A DNA stretch of 64,000 bases, from NCBI GenBank assembly GCA_036250195.1, contig JAVHZZ010000006.1:187239850-187303849 (forward strand), given 5' to 3'. Shown here piece after piece: positions 3,391 through 43,535 of the stretch. The stretch is from Mixophyes australis. Taxonomy: Eukaryota; Chordata; Amphibia; Anura; Limnodynastidae. Under the pieces are notes generated by a model. That model saw only the letters and a list, made by a program, of their open reading frames with translations, was not told the origin of the DNA and ran no database searches. The position numbers and the translations under genes are program-made. How positions within the stretch are numbered: the first letter of the stretch is position 1; every line of letters begins with the position of its first letter.

Positions 3391-3391
3391 C

Positions 3392-10000: not shown

Positions 10001-11369
10001 TGTTGAGGTGGAGAACAAAAGCAAGAGCTATAAAAAGTACATACTATAATCCACATTTTGCGAGAAACAAGGGACAGGCTGGTTAGGGTGATATTAATAC
10101 CTGATTTCACTACAGACACCAGTGTCTTTTGTTATATGATATCAAACTTTTCCTTGGGGTGGACCTGACGTTCCACAGGAAGTTGGTCATAGCATTTCAT
10201 ATAGAAATGCGAAGCAACTTTTCAGGTTTTCACACAAACCTTCACAAACCTCATGCCATGAGATGGGGGCGAGAACTTAAATTTGTTCACTAATGTAACT
10301 CAAGCATGGTTGAATCTGATATTTTATATTAGAAAATGGAATATCCTTATCAATTATCTATACATCATAAAGAAGGAGGACACCAACATATATTTCCACA
10401 TTGTAGCTCATACTAAACCATAAAACATTAGTCAATGACGGTGACTTTATTAGGTTATCCTTAAATAGTTCGCTGTGTTTGCCCTTCATCACCTTCACCT
10501 TACCTTGAATAAGATAACCAACTTATATAAAATAAAGACACGGAGACTTGAGTAAAGTGGCAAACTGACGTATTTTATTATAACCTAATTAAACCTGGTA
10601 GCGGAGAAAGAGGACTGTGGATCAGCTCCAGCGATACCCAACCAAGCGTGGACATGGCAATATAGCCTTAAGTCCACCCACTTCTCTCATAACTCCACTG
10701 CTTGGCCGGCCCTAACCTGGCGTCAGAGTAAACTGCACTTACCTCACTACTCACTCCCCCTCCCTCACTGAGCCGGGCGAGGCCCCTCCCCACAGAAGGG
10801 ACAAGAGTTACCGATTGCCTTTTAAGGGGACAGATACCTGCGGCCAATCACGATAGAGCCGTATATATCAGCCGCTGATCGCAGTGCCTTCCTTCCCCAC
10901 AAACTACCTATAAGCCCTTAATAACCAAGTTAAACACACCACCATTCCTTAAAAATTAAACTTAAAAATGGCGTGGGTGGGTGGGATTTTGCCAGCCGAG
11001 TGACTCAGACCAGGAAGGGCAGCATACTATACAAAGCCACAAGACCCTCCCCTTAGCATCATTGGTCAGGTCTATTTCTCTGTTAACCCCTTCAGGTAAG
11101 TGCAAGCTCGAATGCAACACTGTCACTATTTAATAGCGTTCGTCTATAGGGGACTCTCTTGTAATTAATATCATAGATAAATTAAAGTTTAAGCCCTGAA
11201 CTTTGAAACTCTGCAAAAACCTACATTGGCAAAATTATAGAGTCAACACCAGGCAGAGATGTAGAGAATGCACGAGGAAACAAATTTTGGGTAGGACATT
11301 TTTCTTTCTCTTTGTTGTTTTATATATCCTTTATTCAGTAAGAAGAAATTTAATTCACTTATTTTTCAG
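10001..11369. other. No gene seen; possible retroelement 3' tail at 10500-11090
   Basis: The segment from about 10510 (AATAAAGACACGGAGACTTG, then a tract containing TTTTATTATAACC) resembles in layout the minus-strand end of the Ngaro element at 17190-17290 (AATAAAGACACTTGACACTTG, then TTTTATTAAAAAT). It may be a tail of a related element, but no coding part lies beside it. The rest is unclassified. Confidence 0.35.
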
Positions 11370-12293
11370 GACAACAATTAGAATGTCCAAATCTGGCAAA
11401 CAAGGTTTTAGAATTCTTTTGGCTCTTGCAATAATTTGTATTGTGGTCTTCGGGTTCATCATTCATCTGAAATATTTCCAGGTATGTTCTTTATTGATTA
11501 AACAAATCATATTTTATCTCTGTGGACAGGACTTAATATTTTCTAACAGAAGAAATATTGTTTTCCATCAGCCTTCAAAATTTGAATTTCTTCAAGTAAA
11601 ATATGCTCTGCTCTCTGCCTGGGGACCATCAGAAACAATGACCATTGAAACTGAACCCAAGAACATAGATCAGCAAATAAACCAGCTATTGAATGCCATA
11701 AATCATACAATTCCAAATGTAGACTTTATGTATCTAAATGAAACAACCAATGCTAAAAATAGCATTGCAACCATATTAGATTATAAAGAAAAGTACTGTA
11801 TCGGAGACCCCTTAACTGTTAGAGTTGAAATGTTCAATTATTTTGGTGAAAAGAAGACCTATGGAGGAGACTTTTTACGAGCCCGGATTTTTTCCTCGAA
11901 ACTTGAAGCTGGAGCATCTGGGAAAATTGAAGATTATAACAATGGGACCTATAATGTCTATTTCCCTCTGTTTTGGGAAGGTTCTGTACAAATATCAATC
12001 ATCTTGTTACATCCAAGTGAAGGAGTGTCTGCTTTATGGAAAGCAAGAAATATTGGATATAAATATATCAGTTACACAGGAAAATTCCTCAATAAAAGTC
12101 AAGAAATTCATACAGAATGTGGATTTCACTTGAATTCAATAAAAGAAAGGTGTGAATATGTGGACAAGAAATATGGAGAATTATTCTCTTGCATAAAGCC
12201 ACCAGGGGTAGCTTGTGAGGCTTTTATATCACTGAAGAGTGGGAACACACCTTACACTAATCTCACCAACGTGGAGAAGAATCTTTTTATTAG
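11370..12293 (+). CDS. NXPE-family protein (neurexophilin and PC-esterase domain), partial: N-terminal exon
   Basis: This is the N-terminal part of an NXPE (FAM55) protein, a type II membrane or secreted glycoprotein with a neurexophilin-like domain followed by a PC-esterase domain. A splice acceptor (TTATTTTTCAG) ends at 11369 and the first ATG is at 11383. The protein starts with a short basic stretch and one membrane span (ILLALAIICIVVFGF), a signal anchor. Family blocks follow: KYCIGDPLTVRVE, YGGDFLRARIFS, GASGKIEDYNNGTY, FWEGSVQISIILLHPSEGVS and ISYTGKFLNKSQEIHTECGF. The exon ends in a donor (TTAG then GTAAAT) at 12293, inside the codon for Arg, where human paralogues also change exon as far as I recall. 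No exon for the esterase half was found downstream in this window, so this is either the first part of a gene with long introns or an orphan exon. NXPE genes are multicopy in frogs. Confidence 0.82.
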
Positions 12294-13811
12294 GTAAATA
12301 TTTCCTTCAAATAATGTAGTCGTTTGCATTTTAGATACTTTACTCTCTCCAAACCTAAATAGATTTGTAGAAATGTTTCTGTGACATATTACAAAAGGAC
12401 ATGGGCACCATTCCTTCTATGCAGTACACCAATAATGACACAATTTGCAGATGAAGCTACAATCTGGAAAGTAGTACTGATAAAGTGGTTTTCCACTGCT
12501 GAATAATCTACTTCAAACAACTTCCATTTCGTTAGTTTAGCAGGGCCTCTTACCCAGTATCATATGAGTAGAGTGGCAGAGCAGTAGAGGCCATTGCTGA
12601 ATGAAAAACGCAAGAAGTCAGGAGGATAAAGCAATGTAGTTAGTAAATGTGACAGGAAGGGATGCACACGCTAATTAATTAGTCAGTTTTAGGTGGAAAA
12701 TATGTTTAAAGTGTTATAATTAAATAAATGTGGGGCTGTTGAGATTTAATGTTCCTACCCTGCTAACCTCAACATATTTAAATATTCCTTATATGGATGA
12801 TTTCACATCTGTAAAAGTTGTTTCTTTTTACTGTACCTGTACCGATACTATTGTCTGCATTTATTTAATTTCCTAACCCTATCAATGCAGATATGAGGCT
12901 CTTGCTGAAATGGGCAGAGTCCCATTTGCCTTGCATAAAATACACATATTTGTACTGTGCATGATCCCAAAAAATGCATACACCTACGTCTGTATGCACG
13001 TGCTTCCAGGGGCTGGCTGGGCTGGGGGCAGGGAGGCATCTCCGAGCCAGTCCCAAAGTGAGCTGCCTTGGTTCTGGTCAGTGGACTACCTGCATTAGCA
13101 CTATCTAGCCACTTATAATTGACTGATTGTGTACCCCTGAAGCTTTCATCATTGCTAGAGCCTATAATATATTATTTTTGGGCATATTTTATAACATCTG
13201 TGTGTAAGTATGCCTGTCTTAAACCTGGTGCATATATTACAGGTGCAGTGTGCATGCACCTTCAGATGTGTACTACTCGGCATATGGGGGTAAATGTCCT
13301 AGTATTATGTACTGCTTTATAGAGATATGTGTCCAACTCAGCCTGAGCCCCATACTGTACATCTATAATTATATATGAGTATGTATATTAATGTTAGTCA
13401 GTGAAGGGTTAATCTCAGCACAATATTAAGTATTACAGGAAAAGTACAGAGTCTGAGCAGTCAGGGTAAAAATTAATCCATGCAGGATATATTAAGAAAA
13501 GAAACATATTACTTAGGAATAGCAAACTAGTGTAAATTAATAGATTGCATTATGGAATACACTATGCATTAATAATACCTTAATTGTAGGAACTTTATTT
13601 CAATAAGAGGTTTGGTTTAATAATGCTGGTTAAGAAAATGTTTATTACGTTTTGTCACAAGAGTGAATATAGATTAATCTAATGTTATTTTCTGTGAATT
13701 CAAACATTGTTTCAAAATGTCTCTATCACGTAAGGATTTTGAGTTACACTGAATTAATGTTTACAATATTACGTTTATTAACAATACATACATAGTAAAC
13801 AATTAACTCAC
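12294..13811. other. No further exon recognised; intron or intergenic
   Basis: No open frame here shows NXPE esterase motifs (GDS block or the catalytic Asp-His end) or any other domain. AT-rich, no repeat family identified. Confidence 0.5.

Positions 13812-28033: not shown

Positions 28034-28040
<7 letters not shown>
27957..28040 (-). repeat. Right arm of the inverted repeat pair
   Basis: Inverse of 26160-26222. It runs into a (TA)n tract at 28040-28065 in which the endogenous retrovirus is inserted. Confidence 0.75.
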
Positions 28041-28065
<25 letters not shown>

Positions 28066-28907
28066 TGTCGAAGTCAGTAAATTGGATAAAGTCATTTCAA
28101 TTAAAGTCTAGCAAACTTGGTTGTCTTTGTCTGAAAAGATGCGTACGGTACGCATCGACGTACAAGGGCACGCTACGGCGTGAAAGGGCGTACGCATCCA
28201 CTACACGTGGCAGCAACAGTAATTGGTCTTTTACCATACATTCACACAAACACACATTCTTATAAAATAGTACACATTATTGGTAGTTGCAACACATAGT
28301 CAGTTATGTCGAAATATAGTAGTATTTATATGTTATATCAGAGTTACATGCATATTAGTGAAATACACAGAACGGGTTAAAGGAATAACATCATGAGTGG
28401 TATCATAATGAACCTTGTTACATATCCTACTGTTTGGTTCACTCTGCGAGGGAATCGCAGAGTGCATAGGCAAGTTATGAATGATAGGGAATTATGAACT
28501 ACTTAAGACTAAGGAATTCTGGCGGGAAGAGCAGAGCATACCCCCTGCAGAGATGACCCCCTCCTTTGGATTCCTTAGGATGAACCAGCCAATGATTGAC
28601 GACCCCTTGGACATTCCTGAGACCCGGACCAATAGATGCAAGCCATACCATCTTCATTGTATTACTGTATTTCATTGTGTATATAAGCAGCAGCTTGTGA
28701 TCCAGAGTGCAGACTTCTTGTCCCCAGACTTCAGGATTGAATGACTGCACTGGATCCAGAGCGCCTGCGATAAGTAACGGCTGTATTTACTATTACTTCG
28801 CTTGAGCATATTTTTTTTTCCACTTATTGCGAATAAATCTTTGTGCGTTGGAAACACAAATCGAGGTTCGACAATCGTTATTGGTTAGCGACAATACGCA
28901 CATAACA
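28066..28907 (+). repeat. 5' LTR of the endogenous retrovirus
   Basis: It begins TGTCGAAG and ends CATAACA (TGT...ACA termini). A TATA box lies at 28679-28686 (TATATAAG) and a polyadenylation signal AATAAA at 28832-28837, placing transcription start near 28710 and the R/U5 boundary near 28860. A sequence rich in GTACG and CGTACGC steps at 28140-28195 has the look of a regulatory region in U3. Confidence 0.97.
28679..28686 (+). promoter_or_regulatory. TATA box of the 5' LTR
   Basis: TATATAAG, followed by GCAGCAGC, about 150 bases before the LTR polyadenylation signal. It is the best core promoter candidate in the LTR, and an identical copy is in the 3' LTR near 37687. Confidence 0.8.
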
Positions 28908-28909
28908 AT

Positions 28910-28920
28910 TGGGGGCTCGT
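28910..28920 (+). promoter_or_regulatory. Primer-binding site, proline-tRNA-like
   Basis: TGGGGGCTCGT starts two bases after the 5' LTR. Eleven bases match the usual proline tRNA primer site of class I retroviruses; the next bases (GAGCTTT) do not. The primer identity is therefore probable, not certain. Confidence 0.7.
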
Positions 28921-29901
28921 GAGCTTTGGAGGTTTCGTTGCCGATGATACGCAAGACCAACGGATTTCGGTTCCTCAACAAAGGGTGGAGACGCGTCATA
29001 AACGGGTAAGAACGCATGGTGTTCAAAACCTGAATTTTACTCTGTGTTGCGAAACCGAATGTCCGTTTTGCATTATCTAGGGCACGCTAACTAGAACCTA
29101 GGGACAAAAGAGAAAACTGTTTCTTTTTTCTGTCATTGTGCGTTTTAACTGTATTGCATTATTTAGCGTATGTGTACTTCCTGCTGTGCGTACGCGAACT
29201 TCCGGTAAACTTGCCACGTGGTTAAACAATCGTTTTGATAGTTATTATACATGCATAGTATAATTACTTGTGAAAGCCTCTGAGACATTATTACTATTGT
29301 TGGGAACTTTTGATTTTCTGCGCAGAAAAGGTGTATAGTGTGTGATGTTGTAACATAGATACACTGTTTTATTGTTGAGGTGCTCAGTTGCTGTCTGACG
29401 AGGCGGATTGCCCAACTGAAGGACGGTATACAGGGCAGGTATACCGAATGCGAAAACTGGGTTTTCGCAAAGCGCTACCAATAGATCGCAAGGTTTGCTA
29501 ATAATTAGTATTGGTAGGCAGTGCGATCCGGTCGCACCGTTAGTGCGAATTGGTGAAGCAGCTAGGAGGAATTATACTGGAAAGGCAGGTTGATTGTATC
29601 GACTTTGCGCTCCCAGCGATAATAAACTCAGCAGATTTTGTGGTTTAGCCAGGGTATCGAGGAGCTGATAGCCCTTGGGGCCCACAGTGATATTTCTGTA
29701 TTAGGGAAAAGCGAGTGAGCGCGGCTAAAGGAAATACGTTCACCGAGGATTATAGATCTCTAGCGGTGAGTATAGCAACAGAGTTGAAATTATTAGGTGG
29801 AAAGAACAGAGCATTGCGGTGTGTCTGTATTTCACATTTGGCCGGAAGGAACAGAGCATTGCGGTGTGTCTGTGTTCCGGGTAGAAGGTATATTGTTCAA
29901 C
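28921..29901 (+). other. Retroviral leader with probable major splice donor
   Basis: About 980 bases without a convincing gene. ACGG followed by GTAAGA at 29003-29011 is a good splice donor for a subgenomic env message, and packaging signals would be expected downstream of it. A 25-base direct repeat starts at 29804 and again at 29849. From 29797 the frame is open into gag, but it has no ATG before 29902. Confidence 0.55.
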
Positions 29902-31521
29902 ATGGGTGCTAAGCATACGCTAGAGATGGTCAGTGTACTGCCTAAGGAAGGCCCTATTGGTTCAGCGAGGTTTCTCATGTGTAAGAAGTATGGTGCATAT
30001 GCAACTGTGTATTGTGACACGTGGGTCGGGATGACCAAAGCTTGTGATAGGCCTTTCCCAACAATAGGGAGTTTTAATGCAGAGGTACTGAATACTGTAA
30101 AAGATAAAATATGGTTGATCAAGTCAACGAAAAAGAGAAATAGACATAATGATTGTTTAAAATTGTGGCAAATGGAAGGTAACACGTGGCAGAGCAGCGA
30201 ATGCAAACCGGAAATAGGCGTGGCGAAAAGCGCGCGCAAGGCGGATGTAACCATTGAGAAGCGTGGCGAACTCAGCGCAAGCGCGCCCCCGCCACCTTAT
30301 GTGGCGGGAGGGGTAAGTACAGCCGTTGTTAAAACTGAAAATAGAAAAATTACTAAGTTGTACCCTGTTTTAAATCAATTTCAATCAAGTGTATCTGAAA
30401 ACGAAGATGAACCCACTGTGATTTCGGCCATTGCCCATGCTGTTAATGTACTAGAGGCTCAGCGCAAGTATGAGAAAATGGCTGAGATAGGTGAGAGTAG
30501 CGTGATCACTAGGAGTGAAAGTGTTCTAAATCTAGGGCCTGTAAATCCTGTAGCGTCCCCTGAAGTTAGTGTACCAGAGGGTGTGTTCCCGGTCCGCACA
30601 ATATCAGTTCCCAATGGGAAACCGGATAAGGATGGTGTAGTTCCTTTAAGAAATGTTACAATGCATTGTCCATGGACTAGATCAGAATTACGTTCCATTA
30701 TGACTGAATTCCCAGATCCTAGAAAAGAGTTAGCTAAATGTCAGAAATTTGTTAAAGACTTAGGGAATGCTCATGAACCAACCAGTAAGGATTGGCGGGT
30801 AGTGTTGAGGGCGTGTCTTCCTCCCAATACTAACATACAAAAATTTATTGGAGATTGTTTGTTGGAGGAAGATGACACCCTGACTGATGAGATTAACCAA
30901 CGGAATATAGAACAAATTGTCAAACACTTAGCCATCTGTTTTCCAGTAGTAGTAAATTGGAGTAAGATTTTCACCATTAAACAAAAGGATAGTGAAACTG
31001 CCTCAGATTACTTTGCTAGAGCTATAACAGCGATTGCACGATTTACTGGGATATCCAACATAAGTGAGGACCCACATCACAGAGAGGTAGCTGTAGGGGT
31101 ACTGATGGATGGCCTTAGGGAAAATTTAAAGACGAGAGTACAAACCACATTACCTAATTGGAGAGGCGTCACGGTAGACTTCCTTAGGGAGTCTGCTGTG
31201 GAGCATGACAAGAACCTTTTTAGAAAAAGGGAAGAGAAAAGTGATAGGTTGATGACGGTAAGTATACAGGCTCTAGAAGGGGTGCATACACGACCACCAG
31301 CATACAACCCATATAACAGGAAACCTAAAGTGATCAGGTGTTTCAACTGTAACGAGGAAGGACATTACAGGAGAGATTGTAATAAAGAAAGACTCAATAC
31401 ACATAGGGGTGGGTCACATAGATATCCTCCAAGAAAGGATTCACATAGACTAGAAGACTCACATCTACCCGCGCATATTACGGCAGCAAATGCTGCGCGG
31501 GAAATCACTAGTCAGCGCTAG
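29902..31521 (+). CDS. gag: Retroviral Gag polyprotein, intact
   Basis: Gag builds the virus particle and is cut into matrix, capsid and nucleocapsid. I chose the ATG at 29902 because it starts MGAKHT, with Gly2 suited to N-myristoylation and membrane targeting; the frame is open upstream only from a non-ATG codon. The product is about 539 residues. A proline stretch with PPPY, a late-domain motif for budding, lies near residue 127. The capsid region spans roughly 250-440. One CCHC zinc knuckle (C-x2-C-x4-H-x4-C, RCFNCNEEGHYRRDC) lies near residue 480 and is followed by a basic tail. Gag ends at UAG 31519-31521, with pol in the same frame behind it. One knuckle and a UAG end match the gamma/epsilon group. 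Confidence 0.93.
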   Translation: MGAKHTLEMVSVLPKEGPIGSARFLMCKKYGAYATVYCDTWVGMTKACDRPFPTIGSFNAEVLNTVKDKIWLIKSTKKRNRHNDCLKLWQMEGNTWQSSECKPEIGVAKSARKADVTIEKRGELSASAPPPPYVAGGVSTAVVKTENRKITKLYPVLNQFQSSVSENEDEPTVISAIAHAVNVLEAQRKYEKMAEIGESSVITRSESVLNLGPVNPVASPEVSVPEGVFPVRTISVPNGKPDKDGVVPLRNVTMHCPWTRSELRSIMTEFPDPRKELAKCQKFVKDLGNAHEPTSKDWRVVLRACLPPNTNIQKFIGDCLLEEDDTLTDEINQRNIEQIVKHLAICFPVVVNWSKIFTIKQKDSETASDYFARAITAIARFTGISNISEDPHHREVAVGVLMDGLRENLKTRVQTTLPNWRGVTVDFLRESAVEHDKNLFRKREEKSDRLMTVSIQALEGVHTRPPAYNPYNRKPKVIRCFNCNEEGHYRRDCNKERLNTHRGGSHRYPPRKDSHRLEDSHLPAHITAANAAREITSQR

Positions 31522-34500
31522 GGGTCAGGTCATACCTGTAGTCTACAGCCAGTGAGGTTAACTGAGAGTCAGAGTGAAGAACCAACAATGATAGTTGACA
31601 TAGCTGGCAGGAAACAAACTTTTCTTGTAGATACAGGGGCGGCCCGATCTGTGATAACCTCTCCTTTCAATCTACAGGTGACCAGCAAAACTATTCCAGC
31701 TATGGGGGTGACGGGAAAAGTGTTACATTATCCTCTAACTAAACCCGCCGAAGTTACTATCGGGCCTCTGCATACTAAGCATTCGTTTCTCTTGGCTGCA
31801 GCGGCTCCTACTAACTTGCTAGGGAGAGACTTGTTATGTAAAATGGGATGTGTCATATACTGTACTTCAGATGGTGTGTTCCTAGATATACCCGAGAAGG
31901 TTGCACATGAGGTACAGGACATATTGGACACCCCTCCAAGGTTAATGTTACACTCTCCTGTTATAGAACAAAGTCCATCTCAAGTAAAGGGGATGTTGCT
32001 GGAAATACCAGGTTCCCTATGGACCAGAGATGGACAGGACACTGGACTGATGGCAAACGTAGCCCCTGTCATGGTCAATCTAAAAAGTGGTAGGATAGCT
32101 CCAAAAATCCCACAGTATCCATTAAAACCGGAGGTGGAACTAGGGGTATATCCTGTTATTGAGAGGCTGTTACAACAAGGGATTTTAATTCGTACAGCCA
32201 GTACAGCAAATAGTCCCATTTTCCCTGTGAAGAAGAGTGGGGGGAGGGGCTATAGATTACTCCAGGACTTAAGGGGAATTAACAAAGTTGTTGAGAGCCA
32301 ATTCCCCGTAGTGCCGAATCCAGCTGTCATCCTCATGCAGATTCCACCGTCTGCCAGTCATTTTACTGTCATTGATCTATGTTCTGCTTTCTTTTCAGTC
32401 CCTCTTCACCCTGACTGCCAATACCTTTTTGCATTCTCCTACAGGGGAGTGCAATACACATGGACCAGACTACCCCAGGGGTTCATTGACAGCCCCAGTA
32501 TTTTCTCCCAAGCCTTACATGACTGTTTGCAATCCTTTCAACCCCACAATGGGTCTGTTCTAATTCAATATGTGGACGATTTGTTGTTGTGCTCTGATTC
32601 TTTTATATCATGTTTACATGATACTAAATTGTTGTTGCTTCATCTTTCACAAACAGGGCACAAGGTGGCAAAGGATAAATTACAGCCATGTCAGACTAAG
32701 GTCAAATACTTAGGACACTGCCTCACTAAGGGGCTAAGACACCTGACAACCGACAGAATTGAGGCCATACAACACATGACCCTGCCGCAGAGCCAGAAGC
32801 AGATTCGTACTTTCTTGGGGATGTGTGGATACTGTAGGTCCTGGATCCCAGGTTTTTCTATTCTGGCATTACCATTGCAGGAGCTAGTCTCTTCCTCAAA
32901 ACCAGAACGTGTCGTACACACAGAAGAGTCGGAGCAAGCGTTCTTTAATCTTAAAGATAGTCTGACAAAAGCACCTGCATTGGGAATACCTGATTATGAA
33001 AAGCCTTTTGAGCTATTTTGTACAGAAGCTGATGGCTGTGCAGCAGGTGTCCTCACACAGAAACATGGTGACGCTAGCAGACCGGTAGCATACTACAGTG
33101 CACAATTAGACAATGTGGCAAGGTCACTCCCAACATGTCTCAGAAGTGTAGCAGCAACGGCCCTTCTAGTAAGTAAGAGCGAGGATGTAGTATTAGGACA
33201 TAATTCAACCATCTATACACCCCATGCTGTATCAGCTCTGTTAAATTCAGCCCAAACCAGACATGTTTCTTCAGCTAGATTCACAAAGTGGGAACTAGCC
33301 CTGATGGCACCCTCAAACATCACCATCAAACGATGTAGCACCCTAAATCCAGCTACATACCTTCCGTATGTGTCTCAAGAGACACAAAGGGTGGGAGGTG
33401 AGGAGACCCTGGTTGATGATGAGTTAGGCAAGAATACTGACACGCATGACTGTATGGAACACCTGAATCAGACCTTTACTGCAAGGCCCGACATACGTGA
33501 CACCCCCTTAGAAAATGTAGATTTTACGTTTTATACAGACGGAAGTTGCCATAGACAGACAGAGACAGGAGAGCTATGTACTGGTTACGCTGTTGTAGAC
33601 GATCAGGATGTGGTAGAAGCTGAACCCCTTGGTCCACCTCACTCAGCCCAGGTGGCGGAACTAGTAGCACTAAGGAGAGCGTGTGAATTGGCAGAGGGTA
33701 AATCAGCCAACATATATACTGACTCTAGGTACGCCTTCGGGGTAGTGCATGATTTTGGGGCCCTTTGGCGTCTTAGAAACTTTACGACAGCAGCAGGTAC
33801 ACCAGTGGCACACTCACAACACATAAAAGGACTTCTGACAGCGATACAGTTACCCAGAACAGTAGCCGTCATAAAGTGCAAAGCCCATACCTTTGAAGAA
33901 GACCCAGTGTCATTGGGCAACAACAGGGCAGACGAAGCTGCTAAATGGGCAGCAGGGCAACCTATGACTGTATCGACCGAGACTATGATGGTTTTTCAGA
34001 CATTAGACACGCAGAAATTAATTGAAATGCAAGATTTGTGTTCCCTGCAGGAGAAGGCGGTCTGGAAGGCGAAGGGATGTGGTCAAGAGTCCTCAGGACT
34101 CTGGAGGGATGGACAAGGTAAGCCTGTAGCTCCCCGAACATACTATCCAAGCCTGGCTGAAGCAGCACACGGCCTGACTCACCTGGGTAAAGAAGGTATG
34201 TGCAAACTGGTGAGAGCATACTGGTGTGCTCCCGGATTTTCCTCTCAAGCTGGTAAGAAAGCAATGTCATGTCTTACTTGTTTGAGGAAAAATGTTGGGA
34301 AAACTATTCCAACTGAGCCATCCCACATCCCTCCTACAGACGGACCTTTTCAGGTAATACAAATTGACTATATCCAACTACCACCGTGCAGGAATCTAAA
34401 GTATGTGTTAGTGTGTATTGATGTGTTTTCCGGTTGGGTAGAAGCATATCCGGCAGCCACTAATACTGCTGTGTTCACTGCAAAGAAAATTGTACAAGAC

Positions 34501-35196
34501 TTTGTGTGTAGGTTCGGTATCCCTAGAATCATTGAAAGTGATAGGGGTACCCATTTTACTGGTGATGTCTTCCAAAATATGTGTAAACTCATGGGAATCA
34601 GTAGCAGACTTCACACCCCTTACCGACCACAAGCCAGTGGTAAGGTGGAGAGAGCAAATGGTACTATAAAGAACAAACTAGGTAAGATAATGGCTGAAAC
34701 TGGGTTGGCATGGCCTGAGGCTTTGCCGTTGGTCCTCCACAGCATTCGAACCACTCCTAGACCTCCTCTTAATCTGTCCCCCTTTGAGATACTGTTCGGA
34801 CGACAACCTCATTTGATCGTGAGTCCACAAGACGACTTAAAGTGTAATAATGAAGTGACTGTACAATATCTTATAAGAATGAGTAGACAGCTGAAACAAC
34901 AACAACAAAAACTAAAAATGCTGTCACCTGGTATGCCAGAGACGAACTGTCATGATGTTGAACCTGGAGACTATGTTATGATCCGCAATTTCTTACGTTC
35001 AGGTTGTTTAACAGACCGTTGGGAAGGCCCGTACCAAGTGCTGCTGACCAGTACTACATCACTGAAGGTTGCAGAGAGAGACACTTGGGTCCATTCCACC
35101 CACTGCAGGAGAGTCCATAATCCGGAGAAAGTGCAAGACAAGACTCAGACCGACGACATAGAGCTGTCACTTGTGAGCCTGTTCCGGGAGACCTAA
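31522..35196 (+). CDS. pol: Retroviral Pro-Pol polyprotein, intact, expressed by UAG read-through
   Basis: The frame continues directly from gag through UAG with no stop to the TAA at 35194-35196 (about 1224 residues). Protease: FLVDTGAARSVI near residue 35 and an ILGRDL-type second block (LLGRDLLCKMG). RT: LLQDLRGINKVVE, LPQGFIDSPSIF, and the active-site YVDD at 32569-32580. RNase H: FYTDGSCH, then AELVALRRACE and YTDSRYAF, so its Asp-Glu-Asp set is present. Integrase: an HHCC module (AHGLTHLG ... CLTC) then the DDE set, with Asp in QIDYIQL near 948, Asp in ESDRGTHF about 58 residues on, and Glu in GKVERANG exactly 35 residues after that Asp. All catalytic residues I can check are there. No frameshift is needed for gag-pol, unlike beta- or lentiviruses. 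Confidence 0.95.
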   Translation, partial: GSGHTCSLQPVRLTESQSEEPTMIVDIAGRKQTFLVDTGAARSVITSPFNLQVTSKTIPAMGVTGKVLHYPLTKPAEVTIGPLHTKHSFLLAAAAPTNLLGRDLLCKMGCVIYCTSDGVFLDIPEKVAHEVQDILDTPPRLMLHSPVIEQSPSQVKGMLLEIPGSLWTRDGQDTGLMANVAPVMVNLKSGRIAPKIPQYPLKPEVELGVYPVIERLLQQGILIRTASTANSPIFPVKKSGGRGYRLLQDLRGINKVVESQFPVVPNPAVILMQIPPSASHFTVIDLCSAFFSVPLHPDCQYLFAFSYRGVQYTWTRLPQGFIDSPSIFSQALHDCLQSFQPHNGSVLIQYVDDLLLCSDSFISCLHDTKLLLLHLSQTGHKVAKDKLQPCQTKVKYLGHCLTKGLRHLTTDRIEAIQHMTLPQSQKQIRTFLGMCGYCRSWIPGFSILALPLQELVSSSKPERVVHTEESEQAFFNLKDSLTKAPALGIPDYEKPFELFCTEADGCAAGVLTQKHGDASRPVAYYSAQLDNVARSLPTCLRSVAATALLVSKSEDVVLGHNSTIYTPHAVSALLNSAQTRHVSSARFTKWELALMAPSNITIKRCSTLNPATYLPYVSQETQRVGGEETLVDDELGKNTDTHDCMEHLNQTFTARPDIRDTPLENVDFTFYTDGSCHRQTETGELCTGYAVVDDQDVVEAEPLGPPHSAQVAELVALRRACELAEGKSANIYTDSRYAFGVVHDFGALWRLRNFTTAAGTPVAHSQHIKGLLTAIQLPRTVAVIKCKAHTFEEDPVSLGNNRADEAAKWAAGQPMTVSTETMMVFQTLDTQKLIEMQDLCSLQEKAVWKAKGCGQESSGLWRDGQGKPVAPRTYYPSLAEAAHGLTHLGKEGMCKLVRAYWCAPGFSSQAGKKAMSCLTCLRKNVGKTIPTEPSHIPPTDGPFQVIQIDYIQLPPCRNLKYVLVCIDVFSGWVEAYPAATNTAVFTAKKIVQDFVCRFGIPRIIESDRGTHFTGDVFQNMCKLMGISSRLHTPYRPQASGKVERANGTIKNKLGKIMAETGLAWPEALPLVLHSIRTTPRPPLNLSPFEILFGRQPHLIVSPQDDLKCNNEVTVQYLIRMSRQLKQQQQKLKMLSPGMPETNCHDVEPGDYVMIRNFLRSGCLTDRWEGPYQVLLTSTTSLKVAERDTWVHSTHCRRVHNPEKVQDKTQTDDIELSLVSLFRET

Positions 35197-35253
35197 AGCC
35201 TGCAGTTGAGACACCTGAACCAGAGACGTTACCTCAGAACTATCTTTCCAGCG

Positions 35254-37044
35254 ATGGAGTGGCGGTTTTTGTTTTTCTTTTGTTCCAGGATTTTCCTTGT
35301 TTTTACTTTTTCTAGGACATTCTATTTTTGTGAAGGAGGATGGAGGACGGAGGAGAGTTCTGGGAGTGATACGGATGAAATAGAGGCCGAAGAAAAGTTA
35401 ATAGGATATCCTGAGCAGCCCATTATCAAACTTGGTCCAGGGGTTATGAAAAGGTCTGCTAGCTCAGGAACTCGGAGGCAGTGTGAGGGGCTATTGTCTG
35501 ATGAGTATTGTATCTGCAAGTTCTGCAACTCCCTAGTTGACGAGAGATGCATCCAACGATGCCAGTCCCCCAGTACTCTGAATATAGGCGGGCATCCTTT
35601 GGAGGATTATCACTCCCTGGTGGGTAAGGTGCTAAACCAAACTGAGTGTTGGGTGTGCTCTCACGTGCCTCAAGGGCAGCATAACATAGGACTAGTGCCA
35701 TTCCCGCTAAACATATCCGAAGTACTCGAATTAAGGGGTGGGAGGCCCATAGAAGGGAGGTACAATAACACTAGGTCCCCTAGTCTGACGCTTCGACAAT
35801 ACTCCCTAGGCAGATCGTTGCTGTGCCTAAACATATCTCATGCAAAGCGCCTGGAGAATTGGGAGGCTGACCTATCAGATCAGACAATGGCTCGCCACAC
35901 TCATTTTAGAGAGAGACTCACAAGGTCACTACTAGGCAGGAATGCTGATGGAAGTCACAAGTTAGGGCGTATAACCAAACATAAGAAGGTATCTATTGGA
36001 AAAGTCTCTACAGATAAATGTGAAAATATCATTAATGCCGACACGTGTCTAGAACAAATGGAGACACTAGGCATGGGTAGTTTTATCAAAACTCTGTGTG
36101 ATATAATTCATGGGCATACTGTTCCTTATGTTCTCCCTGATGATGTGTATTTTGTTTGTGGGAGGAAAGCTTATTCCTGGGTGACTCCGAGTTCCAAGGG
36201 CTTGTGTTTCTTAGCTAAACTGGTTCCTGAAATCATGACTATTACTCATGAAGAAATGGTAGATATTCACAAGACTACATCACCACCATACATACACACA
36301 CAGTATGAACACCGTGGCAAGAGAAATATGATTCCTGGTGAGGAACCCATAGCTACAAAATTGATTAGTGAAACTGCTGGTTTCCAAGTCATGGTTGCTC
36401 TAGATCTCACCAGGACCGCTCGGGGAACATTAAACTTTAAATATATCCAAGACCTAGCTAAATTAATAGATAATATCACCGAGATGTATGATGACACTTT
36501 CAGGTATACAGGAAGGGAGCTACAAGCGTACAAAAAGGAGTTGGTGCAACATAGACTGGTACTAAATTATCTCACCTCTATTACTGGTGGGTACTGTGTG
36601 ACACTGGCCACCCAGTTCGGTGTCAAATGTTGCACGTACATTACTAATAATACGGAAGACCCTAAAGAGGTTATAGACCGGAAGATGGATGAAATTTTGC
36701 AGCTGAAATGGGAATTTCGAAAGAGCCATAATTCTTCGTTATATGAGGTCGGGGAAAAGGTGGCGGGTTGGTTCTCATGGTTGAACCCAGCAAAATGGTT
36801 CTCCGGTCTGGGGGAGTGGGTACAGGAAATGATTGCGAGTGTAGGTAAGCTCCTTCTCCTTATACTGGGTGTCATCTTAGCAATTGGTTTAGTTGTCAAA
36901 TGTGTTCCTACTGTGTTGAAGTGTGGAAAACGGTCTCATGGGAGTAACACTGAGAAAGAGACTGAAAGGGTGGTACCAGATACCGAGATCATGGTCTGTG
37001 AAGAAGTATTGTATAATCCTGAACTTGAAACGGTGATTGGGTGA
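35254..37044 (+). CDS. env: Retroviral envelope glycoprotein, intact
   Basis: Env would mediate receptor binding and fusion. The start at ATG 35254 gives a hydrophobic signal peptide (FLFFFCSRIFLVFTF) and a protein of about 596 residues; the frame is open upstream but without an ATG. The surface part has a CWVC (CxxC) motif at residue 132 and several N-x-S/T sites. A basic RGKR site at residues 354-357 fits furin cleavage. The transmembrane subunit has a heptad-like region, then a cysteine motif reading C-x10-CC (GGYCVTLATQFGVKCC), a tryptophan-rich stretch before the membrane, one membrane span near 533-551 and a tail of about 45 residues. In class I viruses the motif is usually C-x6-CC, so the spacing is unusual. 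Env lies in the same frame as pol, 57 bases after it, and does not overlap it. Confidence 0.9.
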   Translation: MEWRFLFFFCSRIFLVFTFSRTFYFCEGGWRTEESSGSDTDEIEAEEKLIGYPEQPIIKLGPGVMKRSASSGTRRQCEGLLSDEYCICKFCNSLVDERCIQRCQSPSTLNIGGHPLEDYHSLVGKVLNQTECWVCSHVPQGQHNIGLVPFPLNISEVLELRGGRPIEGRYNNTRSPSLTLRQYSLGRSLLCLNISHAKRLENWEADLSDQTMARHTHFRERLTRSLLGRNADGSHKLGRITKHKKVSIGKVSTDKCENIINADTCLEQMETLGMGSFIKTLCDIIHGHTVPYVLPDDVYFVCGRKAYSWVTPSSKGLCFLAKLVPEIMTITHEEMVDIHKTTSPPYIHTQYEHRGKRNMIPGEEPIATKLISETAGFQVMVALDLTRTARGTLNFKYIQDLAKLIDNITEMYDDTFRYTGRELQAYKKELVQHRLVLNYLTSITGGYCVTLATQFGVKCCTYITNNTEDPKEVIDRKMDEILQLKWEFRKSHNSSLYEVGEKVAGWFSWLNPAKWFSGLGEWVQEMIASVGKLLLLILGVILAIGLVVKCVPTVLKCGKRSHGSNTEKETERVVPDTEIMVCEEVLYNPELETVIG

Positions 37045-37060
37045 TAGTTTATTACACTAT

Positions 37061-37073
37061 CAAAGGGTGGAAC
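37061..37073 (+). promoter_or_regulatory. Polypurine tract before the 3' LTR
   Basis: AAAGGGTGGAAC directly precedes the TG of the 3' LTR. It primes plus-strand DNA synthesis in retroviruses. Confidence 0.8.
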
Positions 37074-37915
37074 TGTCGAAGTCAGTAAATTGGATAAAGT
37101 CATTTCAATTAAAGTCTAGCAAACTTGGTTGTCTTTGTCTGAAAAGATGCGTACGGTACGCATCGACGTACAAGGGCACGCTACGGCGTGAAAGGGCGTA
37201 CGCATCCACTACACGTGGCAGCAACAGTAATTGGTCTTTTACCATACATTCACACAAACACACATTCTTATAAAATAGTACACATTATTGGTAGTTGCAA
37301 CACATAGTCAGTTATGTCGAAATATAGTAGTATTTATATGTTATATCAGAGTTACATGCATATTAGTGAAATACACAGAACGGGTTAAAGGAATAACATC
37401 ATGAGTGGTATCATAATGAACCTTGTTACATATCCTACTGTTTGGTTCACTCTGCGAGGGAATCGCAGAGTGCATACGCAAGTTATGAATGATAGGGAAT
37501 TATGAACTACTTAAGACTAAGGAATTCTGGCGGGAAGAGCAGAGCATACCCCCTGCAGAGATGACCCCCTCCTTTGGATTCCTTAGGATGAACCAGCCAA
37601 TGATTGACGACCCCTTGGACATTCCTGAGACCCGGACCAATAGATGCAAGCCATACCATCTTCATTGTATTACTGTATTTCATTGTGTATATAAGCAGCA
37701 GCTTGTGATCCAGAGTGCAGACTTCTTGTCCCCAGACTTCAGGATTGAATGACTGCACTGGATCCAGAGCGCCTGCGATAAGTAACGGCTGTATTTACTA
37801 TTACTTCGCTTGAGCATATTTTTTTTTCCACTTATTGCGAATAAATCTTTGTGCGTTGGAAACACAAATCGAGGTTCGACAATCGTTATTGGTTAGCGAC
37901 AATACGCACATAACA
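37074..37915 (+). repeat. 3' LTR of the endogenous retrovirus
   Basis: 842 bp, matching the 5' LTR except for C at 37477 (G at 28469). Its AATAAA at 37840-37845 would end the transcripts. The sequence after it is (AT)n from 37916 to about 37936, the other side of the target tract. Confidence 0.97.
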
Positions 37916-38164
37916 ATATATATATATATATATATATTATATACACACACTATATATATGCAACATTGTTAGAAAAATATGTACTTAGGTATAATATCTC
38001 ATTTTATTTTTATTTTTTTCTGCATAACATCAAAAGGTCCAATATTGGAGTAGAAATTCTCAAACACATTGAAAATATTGAAGTTTTGAAGTGTACAAGT
38101 AAGTTGGTTTTTTGATCACTTGTAATACTTATAAAACATTTGCAGAAATACAACATATTATAAC

Positions 38165-39475
38165 ATTCAACATTAAGCTGAAATGTAATTACTAAATTAC
38201 TTTATTAACAGAATTCAATAGCTTTTTTTATATACTATAGTAAGGTAGAAATTTTAACAGCGGAGTATAATGAATAAATAACTATATTATCAATCACTAT
38301 ATTAAACCTAGTGGTAACCGGCTTAGATTAAACTGAAATATTACTTTATTAACAGAATTCAATAACTTTTTATACTCTACATTACGTGTAAAAAAAAATT
38401 GTTATACGTAAATTGTTGTGATAATATTCTTGACTGTAAAATCTTTGAACTGTGTGCTCTGGGCGACCTGTAACGGTTCCGCCACGTTGACATTCTTGAG
38501 GGCGGCCTCTTGGCTTGTTTGCTGTAAACAAAGCGAAAGTAAATGAATAATGAAATAACACAGCAGTCCGTGATTGTGGTCCTCGCAAGAAGCTCATATA
38601 TATGTTGCTGCAAATAACTGTCACAGTTTCCAGACCACCCAGTAGGTCACATGTTCCATGTAAACCAGCAGGTGCACAGGGAGATTTCACTAACTGCCAC
38701 AGATTCCAGATCAACCAGCAGGTGCACAGGTGTGATGCGCTGACATATGTGACTGCAAATAAGCGTCAGTTTCCAGACCACCCTGCAGGTCACATGCTCC
38801 AGAGCAATCAGCAGGTGCACAGGTGTATTGCCAACGCTTACATTTTCCAGAGGACAATGGTATGCATTGTTGTAATTGGCAGGCAGACATTTTGCGAAAT
38901 AACTCTGAAACAATGCAATCGATTACAACACCAATATTTTTCTGCAAATATACAGACCAAGACCTTTAATTTGGTATATTGTTGTGCTCTGCTCAGACAA
39001 CGGCATCATAGAAATAAGTCGCTCATAAAAGTTGTATTTATGCTATTAATATACAGACTAGAGAAACCTGGCGGTAACCACCTTCAATTAAACTGAAATG
39101 TAATGTCTAAATTACTTTATTAGCAGAATTCAATACATTTTTTATACACTACTATACATGTAGACATTGTAACAAAGGAGTATAATGAATAAATAACTAT
39201 ATTATCAATCACAATATTAAAGGAACTGTAGAATTCCTTTATACACTACAATATATGTATAAGTTCTTCCATCAAAGTTACATTGCTAGGCATGGTCCCC
39301 ACAAGATGCGCTGATATATATGACTGCAAATAACTCACATTTTCCAGACCACCCAACAGGTCACATGTTTCAGAGCAACCAGAAGGTGCACAGGTGTATT
39401 GCCAATGCTCACATTTTCCAGAGGACAATGGAAATGCATTGCTGTAAGTAGCGGGCGGATGTTATACGAAATAAC
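38165..39475 (+). repeat. Dispersed repeat R: AT-rich block plus 50-60 bp minisatellite, host of the hAT insertion
   Basis: An AT-rich block (TGAAATGTAATTACTAAATTACTTTATTAACAG) at 38170-38400 recurs at 39095-39240. Between them is a stretch of short repeats with the pattern CCAGACCACCCAGCAGGTCACATG and CAGCAGGTGCACAGGTG. A piece ending GCGAAATAACTCTGAAACAATGC at 38890-38930 is uninterrupted, whereas its second copy at 39460-39475 is broken by the hAT element and resumes at 45687. Reverse copies are at 55640-56160. No protein is encoded. Its class is unknown. Confidence 0.75.
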
Positions 39476-39860: not shown

Positions 39861-40538
39861 GCTGTGCTGTGCTGTGTTCTGCAGTATCAGTCCAGTGGTG
39901 CTGTGTGCTGTGCTCTGTCCTTCTGAGGTCAGTGGTGCTGCTGGGTCCTGTGCTGTGTCCTGTTCAGTCCAGTGGTGCTGTGTCCTGTGCTCTGTGCTTC
40001 TAAGGGCATAGTTATTTCCCCAATATTCCCCTGTGTTTAAAAAAATAAAAAAAAGTTTTTTTAAAAAATACCAAAAACTACTTTAATTTTTTTTAATTAC
40101 CACAAAATTTGCACAACCAATCCTGCAGTATAAGCCCATTGGTACTGCAATATTACCAAGTTCACACATTCAGCAGTAAAAGTCCAGTGGTACTGCAATA
40201 TTACAAAGTTTACACATTCTGCAGTATCAGTCCAGTGGTGCTGTGTCCTGTGCTCTGTCCTGCTGAGTTCCGTAGTGCTGCTGGGTCCTGTGCCGTGTCC
40301 TGTTCAGTCCAGTGGTGCTGTGTCCTGTGCTCTGTGCTTCTAAGGGCATAGTTATTTCCCCATTATTCCCAAGTTTTTAAAAAATAAAAAAAAAGTAAAA
40401 AAAAATAAAAAAATTTTTTTAAAAAAAAAATATATAATAATTATAACCAAATTTGCAAAACCAATCCAGCAGTGTAAGTCCATTGGTACTGCAATATTAC
40501 CAAGTTCACACATTCTGCAGTATCTTGTGCTACATATA

Positions 40539-43535
40539 ATGGAGACCAAAAATTTGGAGGATAAAGTAGGGAAAGATCAAGACCCACTTCCTCCTAATGC
40601 TGAAGCTGCTGCCACTAGTCATGACATAGACGATGAAATGCCATCAACGTCGTCTTCCAAGCCCGATGCCCAATCTCGTAGTACCGGGCATGTAAAATCC
40701 AAAAAGCCCAAGTTAAGAAAAAGTAGCAAAAAGAGAAACTTTAAATCATCTGAGGAGAAACGTAAAGTTGCCAATATGCCATTTACGACACGGAGTGGCA
40801 AGGAACGGCTTAGGCCCTGGCCCGTGTTCATGACTAGTGGTTTAGCTTCACCCACGGATCTTAGCCCTCCTCCTCCTCCCCCCCCCTACAAAAAATTGAA
40901 GAGAGTTATGCTGTCAGCAACAAAACAGCAAACAACTCTGCCTTCTAAAGAGAAATTATCACAAATCCCCAAGGCGAGTCCAAGGGTGTTGGTGGTTGTC
41001 AAGCCTGACCTTCCCATCACTGTACGGGAAGAGGTGGCTCGGGAGGAGGCTATTGATGATGTAGCTGGCGCTGTGGAGGAACTTGATGATGAGGATGGTG
41101 ATGTGGTTATTGTAAATGAGGCACCAGGGGGGGAAACAGCTGATGTCCATGGGATGAAAAAGCCCATCGTCATGCCTGGTCAGAAGACCAAAAAATGCAC
41201 CTCTTCGGTCTGGAGTTATTTTTATCCAAATCCAGACAACCAATGTATGGCCATATGTAGCTTATGTAAAGCTCAAATAAGCAGGGGTAAGGATCTTGCC
41301 CACCTAGGAACATCCTCCCTTATACGTCACCTGAATAACCTTCATAGTTCAGTGGTTAGTTCAGGAACTGGGGCTAGGACCCTCATCGGTACAGGGACAC
41401 CTAAATCCCGTGGTCCAGTTGGATACACACCAGCAACACCCTCCTCGTCAACTTCCTCCACAATCTCCATCAGATTCAGTCCTGCAGCCCAAGTCAGCAG
41501 CCAGACTGAGTCCTCCTCAATACGGGATTCATCCGAGGAATCCTGCAGCGGTACGCCTACTACTGCCACTGCTGCTGTTGCTGCTGTTAGTCGGTCATCT
41601 TCCCAGAGGGGAAGTCGTAAGACCGCTAAGTCTTTCACAAAACAATTGACCGTCCAACAGTCGTTTGCCATGACCACAAAATACGATAGTAGTCACCCTA
41701 TTGCAAAGCGTATAACTGCGGCTGTAACTGCAATGTTGGTGTTAGACGTGCGCCCGGTGTCCGCCATCAGTGGAGTGGGATTTAGAGGGTTGATGGAGGT
41801 ATTGTGTCCCCGGTACCAAATCCCCTCGAGATTCCACTTCACTAGGCAGGCGATACCAAAAACGTACAGAGAAGTACGATCAAGTGTCCTCAGTGCTCTT
41901 AAAAATGCGGTTGTACCCACTGTCCACTTAACCACGGACATGTGGACAAGTGGTTCTGGGCAAACGAAGGACTATATGACTGTGACAGCCCACTGGGTAG
42001 ATGCATCCCCTTCCGCAGCAACAGCAACAGCTGCATCAGTAGCAGCATCTACAAAATGGCTGCTCATGCAAAGGCAGGCAACATTGTGCATTACAGGCTT
42101 TAATAAGAGGCACAACGCTGACAACATATTAGAGAAAATGAGGGAAATTATCTCCCAGTGGCTTACCCCACTTAGACTCTCATGGGGATTTGTGGTGTCA
42201 GACAATGCCAGTAACATTGTGCGGGCATTAAATATGGGCAATTTCCAGCACGTCCCATGTTTTGCCCACACCATTAATTTGGTGGTGCAGCATTACCTCA
42301 AGAGTGACAGGGGTGTGCAGGAGATGCTTGCGGTGGCGCGCAAAATTGCTGGACACTTTCGGCATTCAGCCAGTGCCTACCGCAGACTAGAGGCACATCA
42401 AAAAAGCATGAACCTGCCCTGCCATCACCTCAAACAAGAGGTTGTGACGCGCTGGAACTCCACCCTCTATATGCTGCAGAGGATGGAGGAGCAGCAAAAG
42501 GCCATTCAGGCCTACACAGCCACCTACGACATAGGCAAAGGAGTGGGGATGCGCCTCAGTCAAGCGCAGTGGAGACTGATTTCCGTGTTGTGCAAGGTTC
42601 TGCAGCCATTTGAACTTGCCACACGAGAAGTCAGTTCCGACACTGCCAGCTTGAGTCAGGTCATTCCCCTGATCAGGCTGTTGCAGAAGCAGCTGGAGAA
42701 AGTGAGGGAGGAGCTGGTAAGCCATTGCGATTACACCAAGCATGTAGCTCTTGTGGATGTAGCCCTTCGTACGCTTTGCCAGGATCCGAGGGTGGTCACT
42801 CTTTTAAAGTCAGAGGAATACATTCTGGCCACCGTGCTCGATCCTCGGTTTAAAGCGTATGTTGTGTCTCTGTTTCCGGCGGACACAAGTCTACAGCGGT
42901 GCAAAGACCTGCTGGTCAGGAGATTGTCCTCTGAAGAGGACCGTGACATGCCAACAGCTCCACCCTCATTTTCTTCCACATCTATGGCTGCGAGGAAAAA
43001 GCTCAGTTTTCCCAAAAGAGGCGCTGGCGGGGATGCTGATAACATCTGGTCCGGACTGAAGGACCTGCCAACCATTGCAGACATGTCTACTGTCGCTGCA
43101 TTGGATGCTGTCACAATAGAAAAAATTGTGGATGATTACTTTGCTGACACCATCCAAGTAGACATGTCAGACAGTCCATATTGTTACTGGCAGGAAAAAA
43201 AGGCAGTTTGGAAGCCCCTGTACAAACTGGCTCTATTTTACCTGAGTTGTCCCCCCTCCAGTGTGTACTCGGAAAGAGTTTTTAGTGCAGCGGGGAACCT
43301 GGTCAGTGAGCGGCGAAGGAGGTTGCTTCCTCATAACGTTGAAAAAATGATGTTTATAAAAATGAATAATCAATTCCTCAATGAAGTACAGCACTGCCCT
43401 TCAGATAGTACAGAGGGACCTGTGGTTGTGGAGTCCAGCGGGGACGAATTGATAATGTGTGATGAGGAGGAAGTACACACTGTAGGGGGAGAGGAATCAG
43501 AGGTTGAGGATGAGGACGACATCTTGCCTCAGTAG
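40539..43535 (+). CDS. hAT transposase with BED zinc finger, intact
   Basis: The enzyme excises and reinserts the element. I start at the ATG at 40539; the frame is open four codons further, but only from a GTG. It encodes about 998 residues without a stop. The first 200 are basic and low complexity, with a likely nuclear localisation region (KSKKPKLRKSSKKRN). A BED-type zinc finger lies near 220-270 (VWSYFY, ICSLCK, then RHLNNLH). The RNase H-like catalytic fold begins near 464 (TTDMWTSG, catalytic Asp), continues with VVSDNASNI (second Asp) near 553, then CFAHTINLVVQ and TRWNSTLYML. The C-terminal dimerisation domain (LALFYLSCPPSSVYSERVFSAAG) is at about 895-950, with a highly acidic tail after it. 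All marker blocks of the superfamily are present. Whether it is active cannot be judged from one copy. Confidence 0.95.
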   Translation: METKNLEDKVGKDQDPLPPNAEAAATSHDIDDEMPSTSSSKPDAQSRSTGHVKSKKPKLRKSSKKRNFKSSEEKRKVANMPFTTRSGKERLRPWPVFMTSGLASPTDLSPPPPPPPYKKLKRVMLSATKQQTTLPSKEKLSQIPKASPRVLVVVKPDLPITVREEVAREEAIDDVAGAVEELDDEDGDVVIVNEAPGGETADVHGMKKPIVMPGQKTKKCTSSVWSYFYPNPDNQCMAICSLCKAQISRGKDLAHLGTSSLIRHLNNLHSSVVSSGTGARTLIGTGTPKSRGPVGYTPATPSSSTSSTISIRFSPAAQVSSQTESSSIRDSSEESCSGTPTTATAAVAAVSRSSSQRGSRKTAKSFTKQLTVQQSFAMTTKYDSSHPIAKRITAAVTAMLVLDVRPVSAISGVGFRGLMEVLCPRYQIPSRFHFTRQAIPKTYREVRSSVLSALKNAVVPTVHLTTDMWTSGSGQTKDYMTVTAHWVDASPSAATATAASVAASTKWLLMQRQATLCITGFNKRHNADNILEKMREIISQWLTPLRLSWGFVVSDNASNIVRALNMGNFQHVPCFAHTINLVVQHYLKSDRGVQEMLAVARKIAGHFRHSASAYRRLEAHQKSMNLPCHHLKQEVVTRWNSTLYMLQRMEEQQKAIQAYTATYDIGKGVGMRLSQAQWRLISVLCKVLQPFELATREVSSDTASLSQVIPLIRLLQKQLEKVREELVSHCDYTKHVALVDVALRTLCQDPRVVTLLKSEEYILATVLDPRFKAYVVSLFPADTSLQRCKDLLVRRLSSEEDRDMPTAPPSFSSTSMAARKKLSFPKRGAGGDADNIWSGLKDLPTIADMSTVAALDAVTIEKIVDDYFADTIQVDMSDSPYCYWQEKKAVWKPLYKLALFYLSCPPSSVYSERVFSAAGNLVSERRRRLLPHNVEKMMFIKMNNQFLNEVQHCPSDSTEGPVVVESSGDELIMCDEEEVHTVGGEESEVEDEDDILPQ

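What the first reader, a model, noticed from the sequence alone, without database searches (positions are those of the whole stretch)
28066..37915. A complete, very young endogenous retrovirus with all genes open
The sequence shows two 842-bp LTRs with one mismatch and gag, pol and env without internal stops or frameshifts. Catalytic residues of protease, RT, RNase H and integrase are present, env keeps its cleavage site and membrane span, and primer site and purine tract are in place. Most ERVs in vertebrate windows are decayed, as the Gypsy and DIRS copies here are. A copy this fresh may still be polymorphic in the host species.
Basis: partly seen in the sequence, partly recalled or inferred. 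Interest (0 to 1): 0.88.

Follow-up and report, generated by a model that had tools for sequence, protein, structure and literature searches.

The report
Intact young frog retrovirus, odd envelope
This is a complete, recently inserted retrovirus in what is probably an Australian frog genome; such insertions are known in frogs, but its envelope protein has a longer cysteine loop than the fixed spacing usually described for this class of viral fusion proteins.

Summary
Window 28066-37915 is a 9,850-bp provirus with two 842-bp LTRs differing at one base; gag, pol and env have no internal stop. One in-frame UAG separates gag from pol. "Primer site in place" needs correcting: only the first 11 nt match tRNA-Pro. 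"May be polymorphic" is untested; one LTR difference gives 0.2-0.6 My at published frog rates, upper 95% bound 3.3 My.

Relatives point to a frog host: the nearest Env is 91% identical (Mixophyes fleayi). In a pol tree of 46 rows the window lies in a 14-row group whose 10 named rows are all frogs, apart from MLV and avian REV.

Env looks gamma-type (CWVC, RGKR, HR1 glycan site), but its TM motif is CX10CC where the literature describes CX6CC. The spacing is kept in the window and 4 of 4 aligned relatives. Of the ISD residues reported invariant, one is changed in 5 of 5 and another in 4 of 5. A provirus with open genes and near-identical LTRs thus carries a conserved variant of the SU-TM disulfide module: new variant of a known kind.

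The parts
28066..28907 (+). 5' LTR, 842 bp, TG...CA
28910..28920 (+). primer-binding site: 11-nt match to the 3' end of tRNA-Pro (CCA, discriminator, acceptor strand), then diverges
   Evidence: tRNA sequence recalled
28921..29901 (+). leader up to the gag ATG; no sense ORF of 100 aa or more apart from the gag frame; CpG o/e 1.12 measured over 28910-29796
29902..31521 (+). gag (MG start, PPPPY late motif, CCHC knuckle), ends in TAG 31519-31521
31522..35196 (+). pol (PR-RT-RNaseH-IN), same frame as gag, ends in TAA
35254..37044 (+). env, 596 aa: CWVC (res 132-135), RGKR (354-357), N407 glycan site, ISD-like stretch, CX10CC (448-460), membrane span (about 533-551)
36595..36633 (+). codons for the CX10CC motif in env TM
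37062..37072 (+). polypurine tract AAAGGGTGGAA, one base before the 3' LTR
37074..37915 (+). 3' LTR, 842 bp; CCAAT 37597 and 37637, TATATA 37688, AATAAA 37840
28040..28065 (.). left (AT)n flank, 26 bp
37916..37937 (.). right (AT)n flank, 22 bp pure

Best explanation
A germline provirus of a simple class I retrovirus in a frog, probably of the Australian Myobatrachoidea, inserted into an (AT)n repeat within roughly the last few million years. Shown from sequence: LTR-gag-pol-env-LTR, all genes open. Inferred: the LTR TATA box and AATAAA drive one genomic RNA; pol is made by readthrough of the in-frame UAG; env is made from a spliced RNA; tRNA-Pro primes reverse transcription through a short 11-nt site; Env is cut at RGKR; SU and TM are held by a disulfide between CWVC and the last cysteine of an enlarged CX10CC loop, which isomerises on receptor binding as in gamma-type Envs. 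Because the four extra residues are kept in all four known relatives, and this provirus was copied recently, the variant module was most likely functional.
For: LTR identity and open frames. Pfam domains RVP, RVT_1, RNase_H, rve, MLVIN_C, zf-CCHC, TLV_coat. Env relatives in Mixophyes and Pseudophryne; gag relative in Pseudophryne; Mixophyes is placed in Myobatrachoidea. Pol tree: window with two unnamed assemblies (100/100), inside a 14-row group with 10 named rows, all anurans (99/99), apart from the 10-row group that holds MLV and avian REV (100/100); midpoint root. C-X10-C in 5 of 5 aligned Envs, the window's included, and CC in 4 of 5. PDB alignments put four extra residues between the cysteines relative to syncytin-1 and syncytin-2.
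Against: The host is inferred only; the 91% Env match is another copy or another species. Only 11 nt of primer match. No unusually stable fold in the 82 nt from the UAG (z 0.18; pseudoknots not tested). The stretch after the cleavage site is weakly hydrophobic (best 15-mer 1.09, no syncytin control run) and not cysteine-flanked, so a fusion peptide is not obvious. The ISD changes are not uniform: the most distant relative, P0006, keeps D where the other four Envs have N. Structure models were poor (pLDDT 33 and 52), so the disulfide is not modelled.
Confidence: 0.8

Rival explanations
1. The insertion is older; its LTRs were homogenised by gene conversion or by collapse of several copies in the assembly.
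For: Flanks are pure (AT)n, a hard place for assemblers. The Poisson range already allows up to 3.3 My at 1e-9.
Against: Three genes, 7,086 bp of coding sequence, are open; a long-resident copy should carry stops. The Mixophyes relative may show such decay (CC to CY, no membrane span in its 469-aa model). No N in the window.
Confidence: 0.12
2. It is a somatic or exogenous provirus of a circulating frog retrovirus in the sequenced animal, not a germline copy.
For: Complete and fresh; relatives of pol (78%) and env (56%, 31 member sequences) occur in unnamed assemblies that may be transcripts.
Against: A single somatic integration would rarely be assembled into a long contig of the reference; related Envs are annotated in frog genomes.
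Confidence: 0.06
3. The env is a co-opted host gene (syncytin-like) and the CX10CC is an adaptation to that role, not a viral trait.
For: Two Pseudophryne relatives are named syncytin-like in their source.
Against: It sits inside a complete provirus with near-identical LTRs; the names look like automatic annotation (inference).
Confidence: 0.03
4. The CX10CC Env is a fusion-dead passenger; the element spreads by retrotransposition or by help from another virus.
For: Two ISD positions reported as identical in 37 Envs (PMC11575397) read H and N here; weak fusion peptide.
Against: The spacing and the H are kept in 5 of 5 Envs, the N in 4 of 5, at 35-88% identity; an unused gene should not stay open.
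Confidence: 0.2

Closest known systems
XtERV-S of Xenopus tropicalis (PMC8278194, passages seen)
   Same: Intact frog provirus with open gag, pol, env, identical LTRs, in-frame stop between gag and pol, class I-type TM; shows that an intact young frog ERV is not new.
   Different: Its gag and pol are class III (ERV-L-like), it uses tRNA-Ser, and its TM keeps CX6CC (paper's table).
Xenopus ERVs Xen-1 and XTERV1 (called epsilon-type in PMC8278194)
   Same: Amphibian class I pol.
   Different: Not compared by sequence here; no reference at hand.
Gammaretroviruses (MLV, avian REV)
   Same: UAG between gag and pol in one frame (trait recalled), MLVIN_C, tRNA-Pro-like primer start (recalled), CXXC and TLV_coat match.
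   Different: Pol lies outside their group at 38% identity; no gamma MA or CA Pfam match in gag at E 0.1; TM motif CX10CC.
Unnamed assemblies P0007 and P0008 (pol), P0004 (env)
   Same: Pol 78% and 57%, env 56% identity; P0004 has CX10CC.
   Different: Host unknown; DNA not available here.

Membership tests
Retroviridae provirus | paired LTRs with TG...CA and gag-pol-env between | tested here: met
Retroviridae provirus | 18-nt tRNA primer-binding site | tested here: inconclusive
   11 leading nt match tRNA-Pro (recalled), 13 of 18 overall; the frog's own tRNAs not available
Retroviridae provirus | target-site duplication | tested here: inconclusive
   (AT)n on both sides allows 4 or 6, excludes 5
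Gammaretrovirus | pol inside the MLV/REV group | tested here: not met
   outside the 10-row group with 100/100 support
Gammaretrovirus | gag-UAG-pol in one frame | tested here: met
Gammaretrovirus | gamma MA/CA domains in gag | tested here: not met
   only zinc-knuckle families matched in Pfam at E 0.1
Epsilonretrovirus | pol with walleye/snakehead viruses | not testable with these tools
   no reference sequence at hand
Epsilonretrovirus | accessory ORFs (recalled trait) | tested here: not met
   no sense ORF of 100 aa or more in LTR or leader besides the gag frame; env ends 29 bp before the 3' LTR
Class I ERV, frog lineage | pol groups with frog ERV pols | tested here: met
   14-row group, 10 of 10 named rows anuran, 99/99; the class I label rests on MLV-type similarity and on PMC8278194 and PMC6001957, not on the tree
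Gamma-type Env | CXXC in SU | tested here: met
   CWVC 132-135
Gamma-type Env | CX6CC in TM | tested here: not met
   CX10CC at 448-460; C-X10-C in 5 of 5 aligned Envs. PMC9967133 words the motif as CXnCC, typically n = 6
Gamma-type Env | ISD residues N540, R541, D545 of MLV (identical in 37 sequences, PMC11575397) | tested here: not met
   H, R, N in the window by alignment to syncytin chains; H in 5 of 5, R in 5 of 5, N in 4 of 5 and D in 1 of 5
Gamma-type Env | furin site and TLV_coat similarity | tested here: met
   RGKR; TLV_coat 27.7 bits over cut-off 22.5, matched by 4 of 5 aligned Envs at E up to 10
Gamma-type Env | SU-TM disulfide | not testable with these tools
   needs protein chemistry

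The most novel reading that the evidence does not exclude
A frog retrovirus lineage carries a distinct, functional subtype of gamma-type Env in which the TM cysteine loop has grown from six to ten residues together with a changed ISD (QHR in all five, LN in four of five), so the supposedly fixed 26-residue disulfide-control module can be rebuilt. A further, weaker lead: the GP2 ectodomain chain 4n21 shares the H and the LNYL of this ISD (10 of 18 identities against 8 of 18 for syncytin-1; E 0.012). That would fit this branch lying nearer than the syncytins to the source of non-retroviral GP2s.
Probability: 0.4. Interest if true: 0.62.

Novelty: new variant of a known kind. Interest (0 to 1): 0.45.

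Why it matters
PMC3758190 and a 2024 mutational study (PMC11575397) treat the ISD plus CX6CC as a unit of constant length that controls the covalent SU-TM bond; the 2023 review (PMC9967133) is looser (CXnCC, typically n = 6). A conserved natural exception in a recently copied virus would show which parts of that unit can change and give a ready comparison protein. It also adds a complete class I provirus from a poorly sampled amphibian group. As an intact young ERV alone it is ordinary: XtERV-S is a precedent.

Tried and rejected
The full Env model (pLDDT 33) and TM model (pLDDT 52) were too poor to use. The BFVD search with the TM model gave no match at E <= 0.001, and the 50 rows shown of 224 name no retroviral or arenaviral glycoprotein, though many rows carry no name; it neither supports nor tests the GP2 lead. 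Scans of viral contigs with the Env alignment and with the front half of pol found no relative. NCBIfam gave nothing for gag or env. The fold after the UAG was not special. Rfam at gathering scores and ARAGORN found nothing in the window. The bacterial promoter scan on the LTR is irrelevant here. Env as a domesticated gene and accessory genes in the leader were considered and set aside. The genome search 'own' failed in 12 of 12 tries, so copy number, empty sites and the host's tRNA genes are unknown.

Other spacings in print: one search found 46 papers holding CX7CC, CX8CC, CX9CC, CX10CC or CXnCC, 20 listed. One search, which asked for two or more of these terms and 'retrovir', listed 5 of 5. 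The three retroviral ones (PMC4798954, PMC9967133, PMC10697888) hold only the generic CXnCC, and none of the five holds a numbered spacing of 7 to 10 together with 'retrovir'. One search listed 4 papers, two of them also seen in passages; the other two were seen as listings only. Papers outside the library, such as the percomORF paper, were not seen, so a description elsewhere is not excluded. A search for an ERV paper on these frog genera listed 10 of 49 papers, none with the words 'endogenous retrovirus'. A search on short primer sites gave one unrelated paper.

Full report
Check of the observation. The window holds a 9,850-bp provirus at exactly the stated coordinates. The two LTRs (28066-28907, 37074-37915) are 842 bp each, begin TG and end CA, and differ at one position. 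The three large ORFs are open: gag 29797-31521 (first ATG 29902), pol frame 31522-35196 and env 35254-37044. All lie in one frame; gag ends in a single UAG followed at once by the pol frame. Single-base shuffles of the internal region gave stop-free runs of at most 214 codons in 100 tries.

Domains. Pfam finds a CCHC knuckle in gag; RVP, RVT_1, RNase H, integrase core and the MLV-type integrase C-terminal domain in pol; and TLV_coat in env, above its cut-off. Integrase reads D949-X57-D1007-X35-E1043 with an HHCC finger before it; RT has LPQG and YVDD; protease has LVDTGA. Among solved chains the front half of pol matches RT/ribonuclease H p80 best (5dmq, E 2e-113; that this is a murine-leukaemia-type enzyme is recalled). 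Gag has an MG start at 29902 and PPPPY.

Cis elements. The LTR has TATATA at 37688 and AATAAA at 37840. The primer site starts two bases after the 5' LTR and matches the canonical tRNA-Pro end (recalled) for 11 nt, which is CCA plus discriminator plus the acceptor strand, and then diverges (13 of 18 overall). Since a retroviral primer site is normally recopied from the tRNA at each cycle (general knowledge), either this frog's tRNA differs or the element uses a short primer match. Three loose splice-donor matches lie in the leader and none to a stricter pattern; none was tested. Both flanks are pure (AT)n, so a duplicated target must be of even length; 4 bp is possible and 5 bp is excluded if the ends are as drawn.

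Age. With anuran rates of 1-3 x 10^-9 (a passage of PMC12822217), one difference in 842 bp dates the insertion to 0.59-0.20 My, with Poisson 95% limits of 0.005 to 3.31 My over that range of rates. "Very young" is fair; "polymorphic" is a guess.

Relatives. Env had 4 hits among 5,512 candidates: Mixophyes fleayi 91% over 76% of the query, an unnamed assembly 56%, and Pseudophryne corroboree 53% and 37%. Gag had 1 among 5,719, Pseudophryne 47%. Pol had 435, of which 120 were listed. I chose 45 of those 120 by hand, mostly named hosts, for a tree with the window. It puts the window with P0007 and P0008 (100/100), inside a 14-row group (99/99) whose 10 named rows (8 genera) are all frogs, the other rows being the window and three unnamed assemblies. 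MLV and avian REV are in a separate 10-row group (100/100) (midpoint root). Against a simple host pattern, one frog row (Bombina) and the two salamander rows fall elsewhere, and two caecilian rows fall on the MLV side. The host is therefore probably a frog, and the Env and gag matches point to Myobatrachoidea (Mixophyes lineage). No epsilonretrovirus reference was available, so gamma- versus epsilon-side placement is open; PMC6001957 (passages seen) says that amphibian viruses of its epsilon-like clade nest within fish viruses.

Env. SU carries CWVC; the cleavage site is RGKR; [quoted passage not shown] The TM cysteines, however, read C448-X10-C459-C460. PMC3758190 (section 6 read) calls CX6CC "rigidly conserved". 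PMC11575397 (passages seen) reports a constant 26-residue ISD-plus-CX6CC unit in an alignment of 37 whole or partial sequences, with N540, R541, D545 and the three cysteines identical in all. PMC9967133 is looser: CXnCC, typically n = 6. In this window the aligned residues are H, R and N, and four residues are added inside the loop. PDB alignments to syncytin-1 and syncytin-2 place a four-residue gap there. All 5 aligned Envs, the window's included, keep C-X10-C; 4 of 5 keep the double cysteine, while the Mixophyes copy has CY and its 469-aa model lacks the anchor. The H is in 5 of 5; the N is in 4 of 5, and the most distant relative, P0006, keeps D. Among the 125 homologous proteins fetched, most of them pol proteins, the one other with a GGxC...CC stretch, from a pigeon, has X6; that is a weak control. 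Conservation at 35-88% identity argues against decay or sequencing error. Only four relatives are known, so the reach of the variant is unknown.

Mechanism. Most likely Env works as other gamma-type Envs do, with an intersubunit disulfide that isomerises through CWVC, but with a longer loop and a changed ISD. This is inference: the AlphaFold models were poor, and no chemistry is available. Against it, the region after the cleavage site is only weakly hydrophobic (best 15-residue mean 1.09, no syncytin control run) and has no cysteine pair around it, so a dead Env remains possible.

A lead. The second of 13 rows for the TM piece is chain 4n21, labelled GP2 Ectodomain (E 0.012); that it is a snake-arenavirus GP2 is recalled. 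It shares H and LNYL with the window's ISD, 10 of 18 identities against 8 of 18 for syncytin-1, although syncytin-1 has the better overall score (19.3 against 18.7 bits). In the printed chain seven residues separate its cysteines and S follows the second, so its loop matches neither X6 nor X10. This is far too short to carry a claim, and the structural search did not help.

Verdict. A real, intact, young provirus. As such it is a new member of a known kind with a published frog precedent (XtERV-S, PMC8278194, passages seen). Its envelope is a new variant, as far as the held library shows.

Noticed in passing
40527-43535 (+): Unbroken 1,002-aa ORF with a BED zinc finger and hAT dimerisation domain. 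No exact 12-nt inverted pair flanks it; one imperfect 19-nt pair (38160/45450, 84%) does and was not assessed (25 of 106 pairs shown). Either a young hAT transposase or a domesticated gene.
   Followed up: partly
11203-12297 (+): ORF matching Pfam Neurexophilin; the only solved relative found is NXPE family member 1 (E 7e-62), so probably an NXPE-type host gene rather than neurexophilin proper.
   Followed up: partly
32-3488 (+): Decayed chromodomain Gypsy-type element in separate ORFs (RVP_2, RVT_1, RNase H, Tf2-1 SH3, chromo).
   Followed up: no
38602-39096 (+): 164-aa ORF with a weak match to a TRAF-like zinc finger, below the curated cut-off.
   Followed up: no
29806-29877: Near-repeat 45 bp apart just before the gag ATG, in frame, coding TEHCGVSVF twice without an ATG.
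   Followed up: no
28910-29796: Leader CpG observed/expected is 1.12, against 0.84 in the LTR, 0.30-0.65 in the genes and 0.40 in the rest of the window.
   Followed up: no
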